Part shown: positions 10,462 through 42,308 of the stretch, one piece after another
How the letters are laid out: every line of letters begins with the position of its first letter
Position numbering within the stretch: the first letter of the stretch is position 1
The notes under the pieces: model-generated
What the model saw: only the letters and a program-made list of their open reading frames with translations
Databases searched by the model: none
What the model was told of the DNA's origin: nothing
Made by a program: the position numbers and the translations under genes
Assembly (NCBI GenBank): GCA_024708885.1
Contig: JANJXT010000061.1
Location: forward strand, 1-64,000
DNA: 64,000 bases
Direction of reading: 5' to 3'
From: Thiobacillus sp.
Lineage (GTDB): Bacteria; Pseudomonadota; Gammaproteobacteria; Burkholderiales; Thiobacillaceae

Positions 10462-11133
10462 TTAGTCGTCCGGCCGGGTCAGGCGCTTGATCACCCCCGC
10501 CGCCCACTCGCGGCCACCGAGGCCGAAGGCCAGCGCAAACGCCAGGCCAATGGCGCCGAAGCCGATCTGGAACGCGGCGGTGAGCAACTGGGTGCCGATC
10601 GCCAGCTGCTCCAGCGCAACGAAGACGACGAACACGATCACCGCATATTCGGCAAGGGTGCTGATCGTCAGCGCGCCCTGCACGCCGATGTTGTTGAGAT
10701 AGGCGAACACCAGGCGGTTGATGAAGCGCGCGATGAGCACACCGAACACCAGCACCAGAATGGCCACGATGATGTTGGGAATGTAGAGCACGACCTTGTT
10801 GAACAGCTCGGCCACCATGTGCAGGCCGAGGCTGTTGGCAACGGTGACGATGACGACAAGGATGACGATCCAGTAGGCCAGCCGGGCGAGCAGGCGCGAC
10901 AGGCTGAGGTCGAGATTGCCTTGCTTGAGGAAGGCCTCGATGCCGGTGCGTTCTGCCAACTGGTCGAAACGCAGCAGATCGAGCAGTTTGGTCACCCCGG
11001 TGCGCACCAGGTTGGCGAAGAGCCAGCCGAGGAACAGCAGCACCAGGGCCAGCAGCAACTGGGGTACGAATCCTGCGAGCTGGGTCCAGAACGATGTCAG
11101 TGAAGCCACGAATACGTCGAGTTGCTGCTGCAT
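10462..11133 (-). CDS. Mechanosensitive-channel-like membrane protein (CmpX/TM-helix repeat type)
   Basis: A 223-residue inner-membrane protein with five to six hydrophobic helices. It contains LLALVLLFLGWLFANLVRTGV and VLYIPNIIVAILVLVFGVLIARFI, the repeated conserved TM-helix unit of the CmpX family, and ends in AFALAFGLGGREWAAGVIKRL, the pore-helix-like stretch shared with MscS channels. It lacks the MscS beta domain. GGAGG lies 10 bases upstream of the start. The family is linked to envelope stress in pseudomonads; the role here is inferred by family only. Confidence 0.8.
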   Translation of the reverse strand: MQQQLDVFVASLTSFWTQLAGFVPQLLLALVLLFLGWLFANLVRTGVTKLLDLLRFDQLAERTGIEAFLKQGNLDLSLSRLLARLAYWIVILVVIVTVANSLGLHMVAELFNKVVLYIPNIIVAILVLVFGVLIARFINRLVFAYLNNIGVQGALTISTLAEYAVIVFVVFVALEQLAIGTQLLTAAFQIGFGAIGLAFALAFGLGGREWAAGVIKRLTRPDD

Positions 11134-11504
11134 GGCGCACGCCTCCTTCGTTGCGGTGGTTTTTCATTATGCCAAAAAGTCCATTGAACCTCCGTATGTG
11201 ACAAATCAACCTGGAAAAAGCAGTTGAACCACAGAGACACAGAGAACAGAGAGAAAAACATGTGCTTGTATTCTTTCCTTGGTTCACCCGGCGGGTGAGT
11301 GGGGAAAAGCACGGAGAATCCCTGTTTCTCCGGTTTCTCCGTGCCTCTGTGTCTCTGTGGTGCGGAATATGGGATCAACCGGATGCAGTTGGGGATTTGA
11401 CCGGACAGGTCCAAAAGCCCGCGACACCGCCGCCGGGATGGCAGTGGCTGTCGCTGGGCTGGTTTTGGGCATACACTGAACGCAGTCGAGTGAGCCGCGC
11501 GCGT
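11134..11504. other. Gap upstream of the hydrogenase operon
   Basis: 371 bases between the divergent channel-like gene and hydB. It holds a complete copy of a small palindromic element (11210-11373) and about 130 bases of ordinary sequence that must carry the hydrogenase promoter. TACACT at 11472-11477 is a possible -10 box but I see no convincing -35. The track ORFs 11262..12632 (upstream part) and 11097..11987 are read-through of the element. Confidence 0.7.
11210..11373 (+). mobile_element. Small palindromic non-autonomous element, copy 1 (164 bp)
   Basis: Begins CCTGGAAAAAGCAGTTGAAC and ends GCGGAATATGGG. ACCACAGAGACACAGAG occurs near the left end, and its inverted counterpart near the right end, so the whole unit can fold back on itself. 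The 5-bp sequence ATCAA flanks it on both sides (11205-11209 and 11374-11378), as expected for a target duplication. A diverged copy in the opposite orientation (41023-41202) matches along its whole length, including the ACATG/CTTG.ATTC centre. It encodes no protein, so any movement would need an enzyme supplied elsewhere. Confidence 0.8.
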
Positions 11505-12632
11505 ATGTTCAACGAAACCGAGCACACCGTTTTCCTTCCGCACGACCGCCTGGCTGGGCTGCTCGCGGCGATCCGCGCTGGCGGCTGGCAGTGCGTGGGG
11601 CCGCGCGTGGAGCAGGGCGCCATCGTCATGGCGCCGCTCGCCGAGAGCGAGGGCCTGCCGCGCGGTCTGCAGGCCGACCAGGCGCCGGGCCAATACCGGC
11701 TCGGTGCGGATGCGAAGCAGCGCTACTTCGCCTGGGCCAACGGTCCGCAGGCGCTCAAGCCGCTGGTTTTCGCGCCACAGGAAACGCTGTGGCGGGTGGC
11801 GCGCGGCACCGACGGCGCGCTGACCTTCGAGGCGGCCGTGCCGGATGCGCCGAAGCGCGCTGTGATCGGCGTGCGCGCCTGCGATCTGGCAGCGCTCGCG
11901 TTGCAGGATGCGCATTTCCTGCGCAAGGGGTGGGACGACGTCCATTATGCCGCGCGTCGCGCGCAGCTCTTTCTGGTCGCGGTGCAATGCGCCGTGCCGG
12001 CTGCCACGTGTTTTTGCGCCTCAACCGGTGACGGACCGACGCCGGGCATGGGCTACGACCTGGCGCTCGCCGAGCTCGACGCGGGCTTCGTCGTGGTGGC
12101 GGGCAGCGCGGCGGGGCGCGCGGTGCTGCAGCAGCTCGATCTTGCCGCCGCCACGCCCGCGCAGATCGGGGCGGCGCGAGAACAGGGTGACGCTGCGGCG
12201 GCGGCGCAGACGCGGCGTCTGCCCGGCCGCGATCTGCGCGATACGCTGATGGCGCGGCTGAAACATCCGCAGTGGGACGCCGTTGCGGCGCGCTGCCTCG
12301 CCTGCGGCAGCTGCACGGCGGTGTGCCCCACCTGTTTCTGCCACGCGGAACACGAGGCCCCTGCACTCGACGGCGCATCGAGCCATCACGCGCGCGAGTG
12401 GGATTCGTGTTTCGGCGAGACGCACGGCCATTTGCACGGTTTCAACGTGCGCCCCGACATCCGCACGCGCTACCGCCAATGGCTGACGCACAAGCTTGCC
12501 GGCTGGCACGATCAGTTCGGCCGCAGCGGTTGCGTCGGCTGCGGACGCTGCATCGCGTGGTGCCCGGCCGGCATCGACTTCACCGCGGAAGTCGCGGCGC
12601 TGACCGGCGCGCCTGACGTGAAGGAGGCCTGA
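11505..12632 (+). CDS. hydB: [NiFe] hydrogenase (group 3b type), beta iron-sulfur subunit
   Basis: Electron-transfer subunit that passes electrons between the flavin subunit and the NiFe core of a cytoplasmic bidirectional hydrogenase. The 375-residue product has two 4Fe-4S motifs in its C-terminal half: [17 protein letters not shown] (about residue 266) and [16 protein letters not shown] (about 345). The order beta-gamma-delta-alpha downstream matches the sulfhydrogenase-like operons hydBGDA. I take ATG 11505 ([12 protein letters not shown]); GTG 11490 in frame is an alternative, and no strong ribosome site decides. The longer track ORF reads through the palindromic element. Confidence 0.9.
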
Positions 12633-12633
12633 G

Positions 12634-13482
12634 ATGACACGTCACGCGGCAATCGATGCAGGCCCCCCGCATGCCGCGACGGTGGTGTCGCGCGTGCAGG
12701 AATCGCCGACCATCTTCACCCTGCGGCTGCGTCTTGACGACCCCGCCGCACAGGCTGCGTTCCGCTTCGCGCCGGGACAGTTCAACATGCTGTATCTGTA
12801 CGGCGTCGGCGAGGTGCCGGTGTCGATCATGTCGGATCCGGAAGAGCACGGCATCATCGGCCACACCATTCGTGCCATCGGGCGGGTCACGCGTGGGCTG
12901 TCGGCCCTGCAGCCGGGCGATCGCGTCGGGCTGCGCGGGCCTTTCGGACGCGGCTGGCCGCTGCAGGACCTGGGCGGCAACGACGTCGTGCTGGTCACCG
13001 GCGGACTCGGCTGCGCGCCCGCGGTGTCGGTGATCCACTATGTGCTGCGCCGCCGCGCACGGTTCGGCAGGCTGGTGATCATCCAGGGCGTGAAGCACGC
13101 CGACGACCTCATCTGGCACATGCAGTACGAGCAATGGGCGAAGCTGCCCGACACGCAGGTGCTGGTCGCGGCGAGCCAGGGTGCCGCGTTCTGGCCCTGG
13201 CACGTCGGCCGCGTCACGGAACTGTTCGGCCTTGCGCGCTTCAACCCGGCGCGCGCGGTGGCCATGCTGTGCGGCCCCGAGGGCATGATGCGCGCCGCGG
13301 CGGAAAGCCTGCTCGGCCGCGGCCTGCCGGAGGCGCACCTGTATCTCAGCATGGAGCGCAACATGCAGTGCGGGGTGGGACGTTGCGGCCACTGCCAGTT
13401 CGGCGGTGCCTTCGTTTGCCAGAACGGTCCCGTGTTCAACTGGGCCGAGGTCAGGGACCTGCTCGGCCACCGGGGATTCTGA
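12634..13482 (+). CDS. hydG: [NiFe] hydrogenase (group 3b type), gamma FAD/NAD(P)-binding subunit
   Basis: Flavoprotein that exchanges electrons with NAD(P)H. The 282 residues follow the ferredoxin-reductase plan: FAD-binding [21 protein letters not shown] (near 45), nucleotide-binding [17 protein letters not shown] (near 120), and a C-terminal 2Fe-2S site [17 protein letters not shown] (about 246-262), as in HydG and dihydroorotate dehydrogenase electron-transfer subunits. It starts one base after the hydB stop, and its own stop overlaps the hydD start, so translation is coupled. Preference for NADP is a property of the group and not visible here. Confidence 0.92.
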
Positions 13483-14271
13483 TGAGTGCGAACGCTTCTG
13501 TGCGCCCGCGCGTCGCGGTGCACAAATTCAGCTCCTGCGACGGCTGCCAGCTCGCCTTCCTCAACCTGGGCGAGGACCTGCTCACGCTTGCCTCGCGCGT
13601 CGACCTTGTCCACTTCGCCGAGGCCGGGCCGCTGGACGCCGACGCCGAGGTCGATGTCGCCTTCGTCGAAGGCAGCGTGTCGACGCCGGAGGACCTCGAA
13701 CGCATCCAGCGCATCCGCGCGCGCAGCCGCGTGCTGGTGGCGATCGGCGCATGCGCCGTGTCCGGCGGCATCCAGGGCTTGCGCAACGGCGCCGACAGCG
13801 CGTCGTGGGTGGCGCGGATCTATGACCACCCCGAGGCGATCGCCAGCCTGGAGCATTCGACGCCGATTGCCACGCACGTTGCGGTCGATTTCGAGCTGTG
13901 GGGCTGTCCGGTCACCGGCACCCAGGTGCTCGGTGTGGTCAACGCCCTGCTGCTCGGCGTGAGCCCGCGCGACAACGCCGACAAGGTGTGCACCGAGTGC
14001 AAGCGTCAGGGCTATCCCTGCGTGCTGGTGGCGCGCGGCATCCCGTGCATGGGGCCGGTGACGCGCGCCGGCTGCGGTGCGCTGTGTCCGGGTCTCGGGC
14101 GCGACTGCTACGGCTGCTTCGGTCCCGCGGAAAGCGCCAACACCGACGCACTGTCTGCGCAGTTCGCGCGGCTGGGGCTCGATACGCAGGCGATCGCGCG
14201 GCGCTTTCAGTCGATCAACAGCCAGGCGCCGATGTTCCGCCAGGCGGCGGACAAGGCAAGGGCGGCTGGCA

Positions 14272-14279
<8 letters not shown>
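13482..14279 (+). CDS. hydD: [NiFe] hydrogenase (group 3b type), delta (small) subunit
   Basis: Small subunit carrying the proximal FeS cluster next to the NiFe site. The 265 residues start [23 protein letters not shown], with the cluster ligands C19 and C22, and continue with GACAVSGGIQGL, an internal CTECKRQGYPC region, and CMGPVTRAGCGALCPGLGRDCYGCFGP near the C terminus. There is no twin-arginine signal peptide, so the enzyme is cytoplasmic. The start overlaps the hydG stop (TGATG). The 381-aa track ORF extends upstream in a shadow frame. Confidence 0.92.
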
Positions 14280-15563
<1,284 letters not shown>

Positions 15564-15567
<4 letters not shown>

Positions 15568-40702: not shown

Positions 40703-40969
40703 ATGACCGCAGCAACCAAAGTGCTGACCGCACATGTGCCGCTTCCGCTGGCCGACAAGGTAGATCAGATGGCTTCACGGCTTGAGCGCTCGCGCGGCTG
40801 GATCATGAAGCAGGCGCTTTCCGCCTGGATCGCCCAGGAAGAGGAGCGCGACAGACTGACCCAAGAAGCGCTGGCTGACGTAGACGCCGGCCGTGTCATC
40901 GATCACCAGGCCGTGCAAGCGTGGGCTGAGAGCCTTGGCACTGACCAGCCGCTGCCGGTGCCGCGTTGA
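40703..40969 (+). CDS. Ribbon-helix-helix antitoxin (ParD/RelB-like)
   Basis: An 88-residue protein. TKVLTAHVPLPLADKVDQMASRLERSRGWIMKQALSAWIAQEEERDRL is an RHH/CopG DNA-binding fold, and the acidic C-terminal tail (LTQEALADVDAGRVIDHQAVQAWAESL) is the type that wraps around a ParE/RelE toxin. GGAGG 8 bases upstream of ATG 40703. The stop overlaps the TTG start of the toxin gene, a classic type II arrangement; that toxin is broken by an insertion. Confidence 0.87.
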   Translation: MTAATKVLTAHVPLPLADKVDQMASRLERSRGWIMKQALSAWIAQEEERDRLTQEALADVDAGRVIDHQAVQAWAESLGTDQPLPVPR

Positions 40970-41429
40970 TAGCGCTGAAGTGGAGCAGCAAGGCGCTTTC
41001 CGATCTGGCGCGCTTGTATGAACCTAAATTCCGCACCACAGAGGCACAGAGGCACAGAGAAACCCGAAAAACAGGGCTTCTCCGCGTTTTTTCCCACTCA
41101 TCCATCGGGTGGGCCGCGGCAGGAATGCAAGCGTATGTTTTTGCTCGCTGCTCGCTGTTCTCTGTGTCTCTGTGTCTCTGTGGTTCAACTGCTTTTTCCA
41201 AGATGAATTCCTGGCTCCGTTGAACAAATCCGCCGCCACGCGGGCGGTGCAGGTGCTGGCCAAGGCCCCGACCATCCTGCTGACCAACCCACGCATCGGC
41301 GAGCAACTTTTCCAGTTCGAGCCGCGTGAGGTACGGCGAATTCTGGTCGGGGAGTACGAGGTTCGCTACGAACTTCAGGATTCGATCATCTACGTGCTGC
41401 GGCTGTGGCATACCCGAGAGAGCCGCTGA
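40966..41429 (+). pseudogene. ParE-family toxin gene interrupted by a palindromic element
   Basis: The N-terminal part (ALKWSSKALSDLARLYE) runs to 41022 and the C-terminal part (EFLAPLNKSAATRAVQVLAKAPTILL...YELQDSIIYVLRLWHTRESR) resumes at 41205. Removing the 180-bp element and one copy of ATGAA restores one open frame of about 93 codons, a full-length ParE with ...RLYEFLAPLNK across the junction. The insert plus duplication is 185 bp, so it also shifts the frame. The start is a TTG overlapping the antitoxin stop. The toxin should be inactive. Confidence 0.88.
41023..41202 (-). mobile_element. Small palindromic non-autonomous element, copy 2 (180 bp)
   Basis: Read on the minus strand it begins CTTGGAAAAAGCAGTTGAAC and ends GCGGAATTTAGG, matching copy 1 at both tips and through the middle. 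ATGAA flanks it at 41018-41022 and 41203-41207. It lies inside a ParE gene, which proves insertion rather than chance similarity. It is 16 bp longer than copy 1, mostly from an extra CAGAGACA-type repeat and a GCGAGCA duplication near the left side. It has no coding capacity. Confidence 0.88.
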
Positions 41430-41681
41430 ACTGAAAAAGCCTGGCTCGAACGAATACAAGAACGACACGTCGGCACGGTGTACGGCGATGTCGCAGGTTA
41501 CTGGTAATATCCGGTGCGGCTCGCCGGTGGCGCGACCGCCGAATTCCAGTGTGACGAGCGGTTGCGCGACAAGCCAGGGGCGACGGCTACCGGGAGATTC
41601 TCTCGCTCTGGCGACCAAGTTGACACAGGCGACAAACGATACTAGTGTGAGCCCTGTCTCAAGCCTGCTGGGGAGATGGCC
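41430..41681. other. Gap after the ParE relic
   Basis: 252 bases with no recognisable gene. The only useful feature is a promoter-like sequence at 41620-41648. Confidence 0.5.
41620..41648 (+). promoter_or_regulatory. Candidate sigma-70 promoter for the antitoxin-like gene
   Basis: TTGACA (41620-41625), 17 bases, TAGTGT (41643-41648). The -35 is consensus and the -10 is weak. It lies 34 bases before the start codon at 41682. Confidence 0.4.
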
Positions 41682-42308
41682 ATGTCCAATGCCATTGAAG
41701 TCATCGCCGGCCGCCTGCCACGCGTCACGGCGGAGGATCTGCGCCGCTTCGCGGATGCCGTCGAAATCCGAGACGCCAAGGCGTTCGCGGCGGAGCTGCA
41801 GGCGTTCGTCCGCGAGCGTGTGGCGGCGGTGAAACTGCCCGCCAACATGGAAGCGGAGACGGTGGAGAAGATCCTGGCACGCAAGACAGCCGCGCTGCGC
41901 GCCGACACGCGCGGGGCGCCGAATGAAACCGACGTCCAGCGTGGCCGTGCCGTGTTGCTGGAAACCTTCAACCAGCCGCAGAACCTGGCTCCCCCCGAGT
42001 TCGCCAAGCTGGCGCACAAGTCGCGTCAGCAGATCTACAAGGACATCCGCGCGCGTCGGCTGCTGGCGCTGAACGTGGGGCCGCGCGGCCAGAAGCTGCC
42101 CGACTGGCAACTCGATCCGGTGAAGCAGCAGTTGACCCAAACCGTGCTTCAGGACGTCGGGGGCATCGACAACTGGACGATCTACCGCGCGCTGTCCGAA
42201 CCGCTCGAAGGCTTGGGCCGGCGCTCACCCGTGGATGCAGTGATGCCCGGTATGATCGATGACGTGGCCAAAGCCGTGTTCAACGTGCTGGGCGTCCAGG
42301 TGCATTGA
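41682..42308 (+). CDS. Orphan antitoxin-like protein (possibly Xre/MbcA/ParS-type)
   Basis: A 208-residue soluble protein. The first ~75 residues are helical (VTAEDLRRFADAVEIRDAKAFAAELQAFVRERV). The middle has a helix-turn-helix-like stretch FAKLAHKSRQQIYKDIRARRLLALNVG. The end (YRALSEPLEGLGRRSPVDAVMPGMIDDVAKAVFNVLGV) resembles the toxin-binding tail of Xre/MbcA/ParS antitoxins, where a GRRPxDAV motif and an AxxAVxxALG helix recur. The assignment is tentative. GGGGAG 6 bases upstream favours ATG 41682 over 41676. Such antitoxins usually precede a RES toxin; none is present. Confidence 0.6.
   Translation: MSNAIEVIAGRLPRVTAEDLRRFADAVEIRDAKAFAAELQAFVRERVAAVKLPANMEAETVEKILARKTAALRADTRGAPNETDVQRGRAVLLETFNQPQNLAPPEFAKLAHKSRQQIYKDIRARRLLALNVGPRGQKLPDWQLDPVKQQLTQTVLQDVGGIDNWTIYRALSEPLEGLGRRSPVDAVMPGMIDDVAKAVFNVLGVQVH

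What the first reader, a model, noticed from the sequence alone, without database searches (positions are those of the whole stretch)
11210..11373. Second copy of the same element, with its own 5-bp duplication, upstream of the hydrogenase operon
Copy 1 (164 bp) and copy 2 (180 bp, opposite strand) share both tips (CYTGGAAAAAGC… and …GCGGAATWTRGG) and internal sequence, and each is flanked by a different exact 5-bp repeat (ATCAA, ATGAA). Two independent duplications of equal length define a true mobile unit of MITE type with an unknown transposase. Its position 131 bp before hydB could alter hydrogenase expression.
Basis: partly seen in the sequence, partly recalled or inferred. Interest (0 to 1): 0.75.

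Follow-up and report, generated by a model that had tools for sequence, protein, structure and literature searches.

The report
High-copy bacterial MITE, IS1380-like ends
The finding is one of roughly 45 copies of a short, gene-less jumping element that pastes itself with a 5-base duplication at WTNAW sites; it is a real but ordinary kind of element (a MITE), most likely moved by a transposase of the IS1380 family, and it sits beside rather than inside the likely hydrogenase promoter.

Summary
Observation confirmed. Window 11210-11373 (164 bp, TSD ATCAA) and 41023-41202 (180 bp, opposite strand, TSD ATGAA) belong to a family of about 45 copies in the 2.56-Mb genome. Among 37 copies with both ends, 21 have an identical 5-bp duplication and 27 match within one mismatch (shuffled mean 3.4, maximum 10 in 20,000). 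The target is WTNAW. In relatives carrying the uninterrupted copy-2 target, both duplications map to the same five bases. The relatives examined lack copy 1.

It is a MITE: no gene, tips CCTGGAAAAAGC...GCGGAATRYAGG, hairpin arms of CACAGAGA octamers. The "unknown transposase" can be narrowed. IS1380-family elements in the same order and class have CC-starting ends, 5-bp duplications and mostly the same WTNAW target. One (L142) has tip CCTCAAAAAAGC (10/12 match to one MITE tip); another (L159) matches the other tip at 9-10/12. No autonomous element with these exact tips was found, so the mobiliser is inferred.

An effect on the hydrogenase is not supported: a promoter-like motif conserved in relatives lies between element and hydB. 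Copy 2 interrupts a parE-type toxin gene. New member of a known kind; modest interest.

The parts
11205..11209 (+). left target-site duplication of copy 1, ATCAA
11210..11373 (+). MITE copy 1 (164 bp); left tip CCTGGAAAAAGC, right tip GCGGAATATGGG
11229..11244 (+). left arm of the hairpin, CCACAGAGACACAGAG (CACAGAGA octamer units)
11336..11361 (+). right arm of the hairpin, ...CTCCGTGCCTCTGTGTCTCTGTGG
11374..11378 (+). right target-site duplication of copy 1, ATCAA
11463..11480 (+). promoter-like motif TTTTGGGCATACACTG conserved upstream of hydB in genus mates (approximate coordinates); not part of the element
11505..12632 (+). hydB-like gene (group 3b type NAD(P) hydrogenase beta subunit), neighbour
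   Evidence: best NCBIfam hit sulfhyd_HydB, below its cut-off
10462..11133 (-). mechanosensitive ion channel family gene, divergent neighbour
   Evidence: PF05552
41018..41022 (+). target-site duplication of copy 2, ATGAA
41023..41202 (-). MITE copy 2 (180 bp), with an arm expanded by octamer units
41203..41207 (+). target-site duplication of copy 2, ATGAA
40703..40969 (+). ribbon-helix-helix antitoxin-like gene next to copy 2
   Evidence: PF01402
41205..41429 (+). 3' part of a ParE-type toxin gene that copy 2 interrupts
   Evidence: PF05016

Best explanation
The element is a non-autonomous DNA transposon (MITE). A DDE transposase supplied in trans, most likely of the IS1380 family (the part of it that makes 5-bp duplications), binds the two tips (CCT...), moves the element and inserts it at a 5-bp WTNAW site with staggered joining, which leaves the 5-bp duplication. 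Shown here: high copy number, defined tips, 5-bp duplication, WTNAW target, uninterrupted target sites in relatives, absence of copy 1 in relatives. Inferred: the identity of the transposase and whether the element still moves. The octamer arms form a hairpin that changes length by slippage and has flipped the interior in at least two copies; no cellular function needs to be assumed.
For: About 45 copies; TSD statistics; WTNAW in 56 of 78 flanks. Uninterrupted copy-2 target in relatives: with the two flanks aligned separately, both duplications map to the same five bases (L148, L151 and L153; L150 agrees to within a base). Copy 1 absent at the syntenic place in genus mates. Genus mates have related elements with exact TSDs ATGAA, TTTAT, TTTAT, ATGAA. 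IS1380 link: elements with IS1380 transposases in the order and class have CC-starting ends. Those that make 5-bp duplications use TTCAT, CTCAT, TTCAA, TTCAT, TTCAA (G104, five copies), ATTAA (L141), ATTAT/ATTAA (L142, one mismatch), TTAAA and TATAA (L159, L164), ATAAA (L160), and ATAAA (L183, Aliarcobacter). L142 is IS1380 by NCBIfam above cut-off; its nearest annotated plasmid relatives are IS1380/ISEcp1 transposases. MITE left tip vs L142 tip 10/12; right tip vs L159 tip 9-10/12; 0.2% and 1.3% of CC-starting 12-mers from the genome reach 10/12 and 9/12 or more against the same tip set. 5-bp duplications are published for IS1380 members IS1247 (PMC3281130) and ISEcp1 (PMC2887853).
Against: No autonomous element with these exact tips was found in the own genome (right-tip pattern; the non-MITE hits looked at were in non-element sequence) or among genus mates. 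The one IS1380 gene in the own genome (L060) has no recognisable ends and belongs to another branch. The two MITE tips are only 7/12 alike, so the L142 and L159 matches come from two different elements. L164 (TATAA) and published ISEcp1 (TATGA) depart from WTNAW. 10 of 37 copies have flanks differing by two or more bases, partly from tip decay or mis-set boundaries.
Confidence: 0.68

Rival explanations
1. A MITE mobilised by a DDE transposase of another family (for example IS1634, IS4 group, or a Tn3-type element as in TIMEs) that happens to make a 5-bp duplication at AT-rich sites.
For: The partner element has not been found; only IS1380 was searched for systematically. Tn3 elements also make 5-bp AT-rich duplications (PMC2887853).
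Against: CC-starting tips with 10/12 and 9-10/12 matches to IS1380 tips, plus the shared WTNAW target. Tn3-type ends are 38 bp and begin GGGG (own knowledge); these do not.
Confidence: 0.22
2. A structural or regulatory palindrome (REP/ERIC-like or RNA element) spread by other means, in which the hairpin is the selected feature and the flanking 5 bp are coincidental or part of the motif.
For: Very stable hairpin, -72.7 kcal/mol, z -5.5; high copy number; many copies sit between genes.
Against: The 5 bp are duplicated copy by copy with different sequences and map to a single 5-bp site in uninterrupted relatives. The main stem shows no compensatory changes (the three pairs changed on both sides are all in small inner helices; covariation term -0.55). 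No Rfam match in the window at gathering threshold. Copy 2 lies inside a gene.
Confidence: 0.04
3. The insertion at copy 1 changes hydrogenase (or channel gene) expression, for example by supplying a promoter, a terminator or by moving upstream regulatory sites.
For: Position in the divergent spacer; one terminator-like hairpin on the minus strand inside the element, 11332-11312.
Against: A promoter-like motif conserved in genus mates lies downstream of the element and is intact; no consensus promoter-like site was found in the spacer; the spacer is variable in relatives, so no fixed upstream site is evident.
Confidence: 0.12

Closest known systems
IS1380-family insertion sequences, 5-bp group (ISEcp1, IS1247; here L098, L141, L142, L159, L160)
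   Same: Tips starting CC, 5-bp duplication, AT-rich WTNAW-type target, tip similarity of 9-10/12
   Different: The element is about 165 bp with no transposase; no IS1380 element with its exact tips was found
Chunjie, a MITE of Geobacter uraniireducens (Chen et al. 2008, as described in review PMC10969869)
   Same: Non-autonomous, 178-235 bp, 38 copies with conserved ends and duplications plus many partial copies, mostly between genes
   Different: Sequence not compared here (the original paper is not held); its partner family was not examined
TIMEs, Tn3-derived miniature elements (PMC4133298)
   Same: Non-autonomous miniature elements; Tn3 duplications are also 5 bp
   Different: Tn3-type ends are long (38 bp) and begin GGGG (own knowledge); the tips here start CCT and do not fit
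REP/ERIC-type palindromic repeats
   Same: Short, high-copy, hairpin-forming, mostly between genes
   Different: No target-site duplication in REPs (own knowledge); here it is demonstrated

Membership tests
MITE (miniature inverted-repeat transposable element) | short and without a transposase gene | tested here: met
   156-181 bp in nearly all complete copies; no room for a transposase gene
MITE (miniature inverted-repeat transposable element) | multiple copies with common ends | tested here: met
MITE (miniature inverted-repeat transposable element) | target-site duplication | tested here: met
MITE (miniature inverted-repeat transposable element) | terminal inverted repeats | tested here: inconclusive
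   The outermost 12 bp of the two ends agree at 7 of 12 positions only; long subterminal inverted arms are present
MITE (miniature inverted-repeat transposable element) | mobilised in trans by a related autonomous element | tested here: inconclusive
   No partner with the same tips found
IS1380-derived element | tips start CC and resemble IS1380 terminal repeats | tested here: met
   10/12 to L142, 9-10/12 to L159; null 0.2% and 1.3%
IS1380-derived element | 4-5 bp duplication at an AT-rich target | tested here: met
   literature PMC2887853, PMC3281130
IS1380-derived element | derivation from, or mobilisation by, a named IS1380 element | tested here: inconclusive
   parent not found
TIME (Tn3-derived) | 38-bp-type ends beginning GGGG | tested here: not met
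   tips CCTGGAAAAAGC / CCTRYATTCCGC

The most novel reading that the evidence does not exclude
An unnamed MITE superfamily with CACAGAGA-octamer arms, spread over the genus, another family of the order (G049) and possibly distant families of the phylum, moved by 5-bp-group IS1380 transposases, persisting where the parent is lost, and able to flip its interior through its arms.
Probability: 0.35. Interest if true: 0.45.

Novelty: new member of a known kind. Interest (0 to 1): 0.28.

Why it matters
It gives this MITE family a probable transposase family and an exact target rule (WTNAW, 5 bp), which makes its mobility testable. It also explains four contig breaks in this assembly and an interrupted toxin-antitoxin locus. 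It does not bear on a long-standing question by itself.

Tried and rejected
Own IS1380 gene L060 as the mobiliser: no recognisable ends and no tip match; a wrong ORF was taken for L060 and this was corrected. Non-MITE right-tip hits in the own genome: those looked at lay in non-element sequence; the list was cut at 100 of 106 places. Left-tip pattern in 13 genomes: a poorly chosen last position (H) removed most copies, so its counts are not used; two non-MITE hits (G002:C86:7097, G013:C31:75749) were not followed. Scan of genome contigs with L142/L097 found only the same genome, because the patterns were too narrow; viral contigs none; plasmids and phages hold no similar element DNA. IS1380 fragments in the closest mate G348 (L166, L170) are remnants without the tips. 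Rfam: nothing at gathering threshold. Sequence strings searched in papers: only chance hits in unrelated papers. In one search the two flanks of copy 2 were joined in a script before I recognised that copy 2 lies in a bacterial toxin-antitoxin gene; that joined sequence is not used here, and the test was redone with the flanks aligned separately.

Full report
Observation. The 164-bp stretch at 11210-11373 and the 180-bp stretch at 41023-41202 (opposite strand) share both tips and the interior, and each is flanked by its own exact 5-bp repeat. The short tip patterns alone could occur twice by chance in 64 kb; the full-length match could not. A search of the whole genome (2.56 Mb, 67 contigs, 84% complete) gave about 42 places, and further copies were seen in fetched stretches, so the family has about 45 copies or more.

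Target-site duplication. In an alignment of 43 copies with flanks the sequence agreement ends at the tips. With boundaries set by the tips, 21 of 39 rows (two of them cut by contig ends) have an identical 5-bp duplication and 27 are within one mismatch; dealing the right flanks out at random gives mean 3.4 and maximum 10 in 20,000 trials. The signal is at length 5 and hardly at other lengths. 56 of 78 flanks fit WTNAW; the commonest exact duplications are ATGAA (7) and TTCAT (6), which are reverse complements of each other.

Uninterrupted sites. For copy 2, several genus mates have the uninterrupted locus. When the two flanks are aligned separately to them, the two duplications fall on the same five bases in L148 (1728-1724), L151 (1718-1714) and L153 (1717-1713, extrapolated by one base); L150 agrees. 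The closest mate, G348, has copy 2 at the same site. For copy 1, genus mates with the same gene order (channel gene, spacer, hydB) have no element there. The spacer itself is too variable for a base-exact pre-insertion site: G348 has 35 bp where the window has 273 bp, more than the 169 bp of element plus duplication. Copy 1 is therefore a younger insertion than the split from G348, G010 and G004.

Anatomy. The tips are CCTGGAAAAAGC and GCGGAATRYAGG; inside lie long inverted arms made of CACAGAGA octamers around a non-palindromic centre. Many lengths differ by 8 or 16 bp (157, 165, 181), and the alignment shows gain or loss of octamer units, as expected from slippage. Two copies (C48:25814-25996 in L036, and C50 near 109972 in L068) have the interior inverted relative to the tips. 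The main stem shows no compensatory base changes, so there is no sign of selection for an RNA structure.

Mechanism. The features fit a MITE moved in trans by a DDE transposase. From general knowledge of IS families, tips beginning CC with a 4-5 bp duplication are typical of IS1380, so I tested that family. IS1380 elements in the order have CC-starting terminal repeats; some make 4-bp duplications (CTAG, CTAA, TTAA), others 5-bp ones. The 5-bp group uses the same kind of target as the MITE: five copies in G104 have TTCAT, CTCAT, TTCAA, TTCAT, TTCAA; L141 ATTAA; L160 ATAAA, L159 TTAAA, L164 TATAA; L183 ATAAA. L142, an IS1380 transposase by NCBIfam, has tips CCTCAAAAAAGC and CCTCAAAAATGC with flanks ATTAT/ATTAA; 10 of 12 bases agree with the MITE left tip. 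L159's tip CCTAAATTCTGC agrees with the MITE right tip at 9-10 of 12. Among CC-starting 12-mers of this genome 0.2% reach 10/12 and 1.3% reach 9/12 or more against the same set of tips. Published IS1380 members also make 5-bp duplications (ISEcp1, PMC2887853; IS1247, PMC3281130). The step from this resemblance to 'mobilised by IS1380' is an inference: no autonomous element with these exact tips was found in the own genome or in genus mates, and the only IS1380 gene in the own genome, L060, is of another branch with no recognisable ends. G348 holds remnants of 5-bp-group IS1380 genes.

The hydrogenase. The genes at 11505-15567 encode a group 3b type NAD(P)-linked [NiFe] hydrogenase (the NCBIfam equivalog cut-offs are not reached, so the exact subtype is an inference). 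The element lies in the divergent spacer. A motif TTTTGGGCATACACTG, conserved in genus mates about 35 bp before the start codon, is intact and lies between the element and hydB. The consensus scan finds no promoter-like site in the spacer. An effect on expression is untested and nothing here favours it.

Distribution. 14 of 59 relatives (11 genus mates plus G033, G049 of another family and G058) had a match besides the own genome, several with many places; four relatives' loci show tips and exact duplications. In 398 genomes drawn from the phylum only six others matched at 1e-6, mostly through the octamer arm, so wide spread of the tips is not shown. Plasmid and phage collections had none.

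Verdict. A real, well-defined MITE family with a probable IS1380-type mobiliser: a new member of a known kind, with modest interest.

Noticed in passing
window 40703-41429: Copy 2 interrupts a ParE-type toxin gene next to a ribbon-helix-helix antitoxin-like gene (Pfam PF05016 and PF01402); genus mates have the uninterrupted locus.
   Followed up: yes
L006/L010 (G000:C45:11865-12192): Two copies in direct tandem, separated by the 5-bp sequence ATAAT, which is the exact duplication of the first copy; the second copy's right flank is TTGAT.
   Followed up: partly
L036 (G000:C48:25814-25996) and L068 (G000:C50 near 109972): Two copies have the interior inverted relative to their tips, suggesting flipping through the inverted arms.
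   Followed up: partly
G000 contigs C16 (end), C52 (end), C15 (end), C32 (start): Four contigs end inside copies of this element, so it limits the assembly.
   Followed up: no
L014 (G000:C54:50685) and L025 (G000:C12:70304): Short flanks of these two copies look alike by eye just outside the element, but a BLAST of the loci aligns little beyond the element; unexplained.
   Followed up: partly
window 41209-42240 against G348:C92: 99% identity to G348 here, against about 83-92% elsewhere in the compared parts of the window: possible recent exchange of this stretch.
   Followed up: no
L060 (G000:C16:13006-14277): A single IS1380 transposase gene with an open 463-aa frame but without recognisable terminal repeats; a relative, 41-43% identical, is in G123 (L171).
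   Followed up: partly
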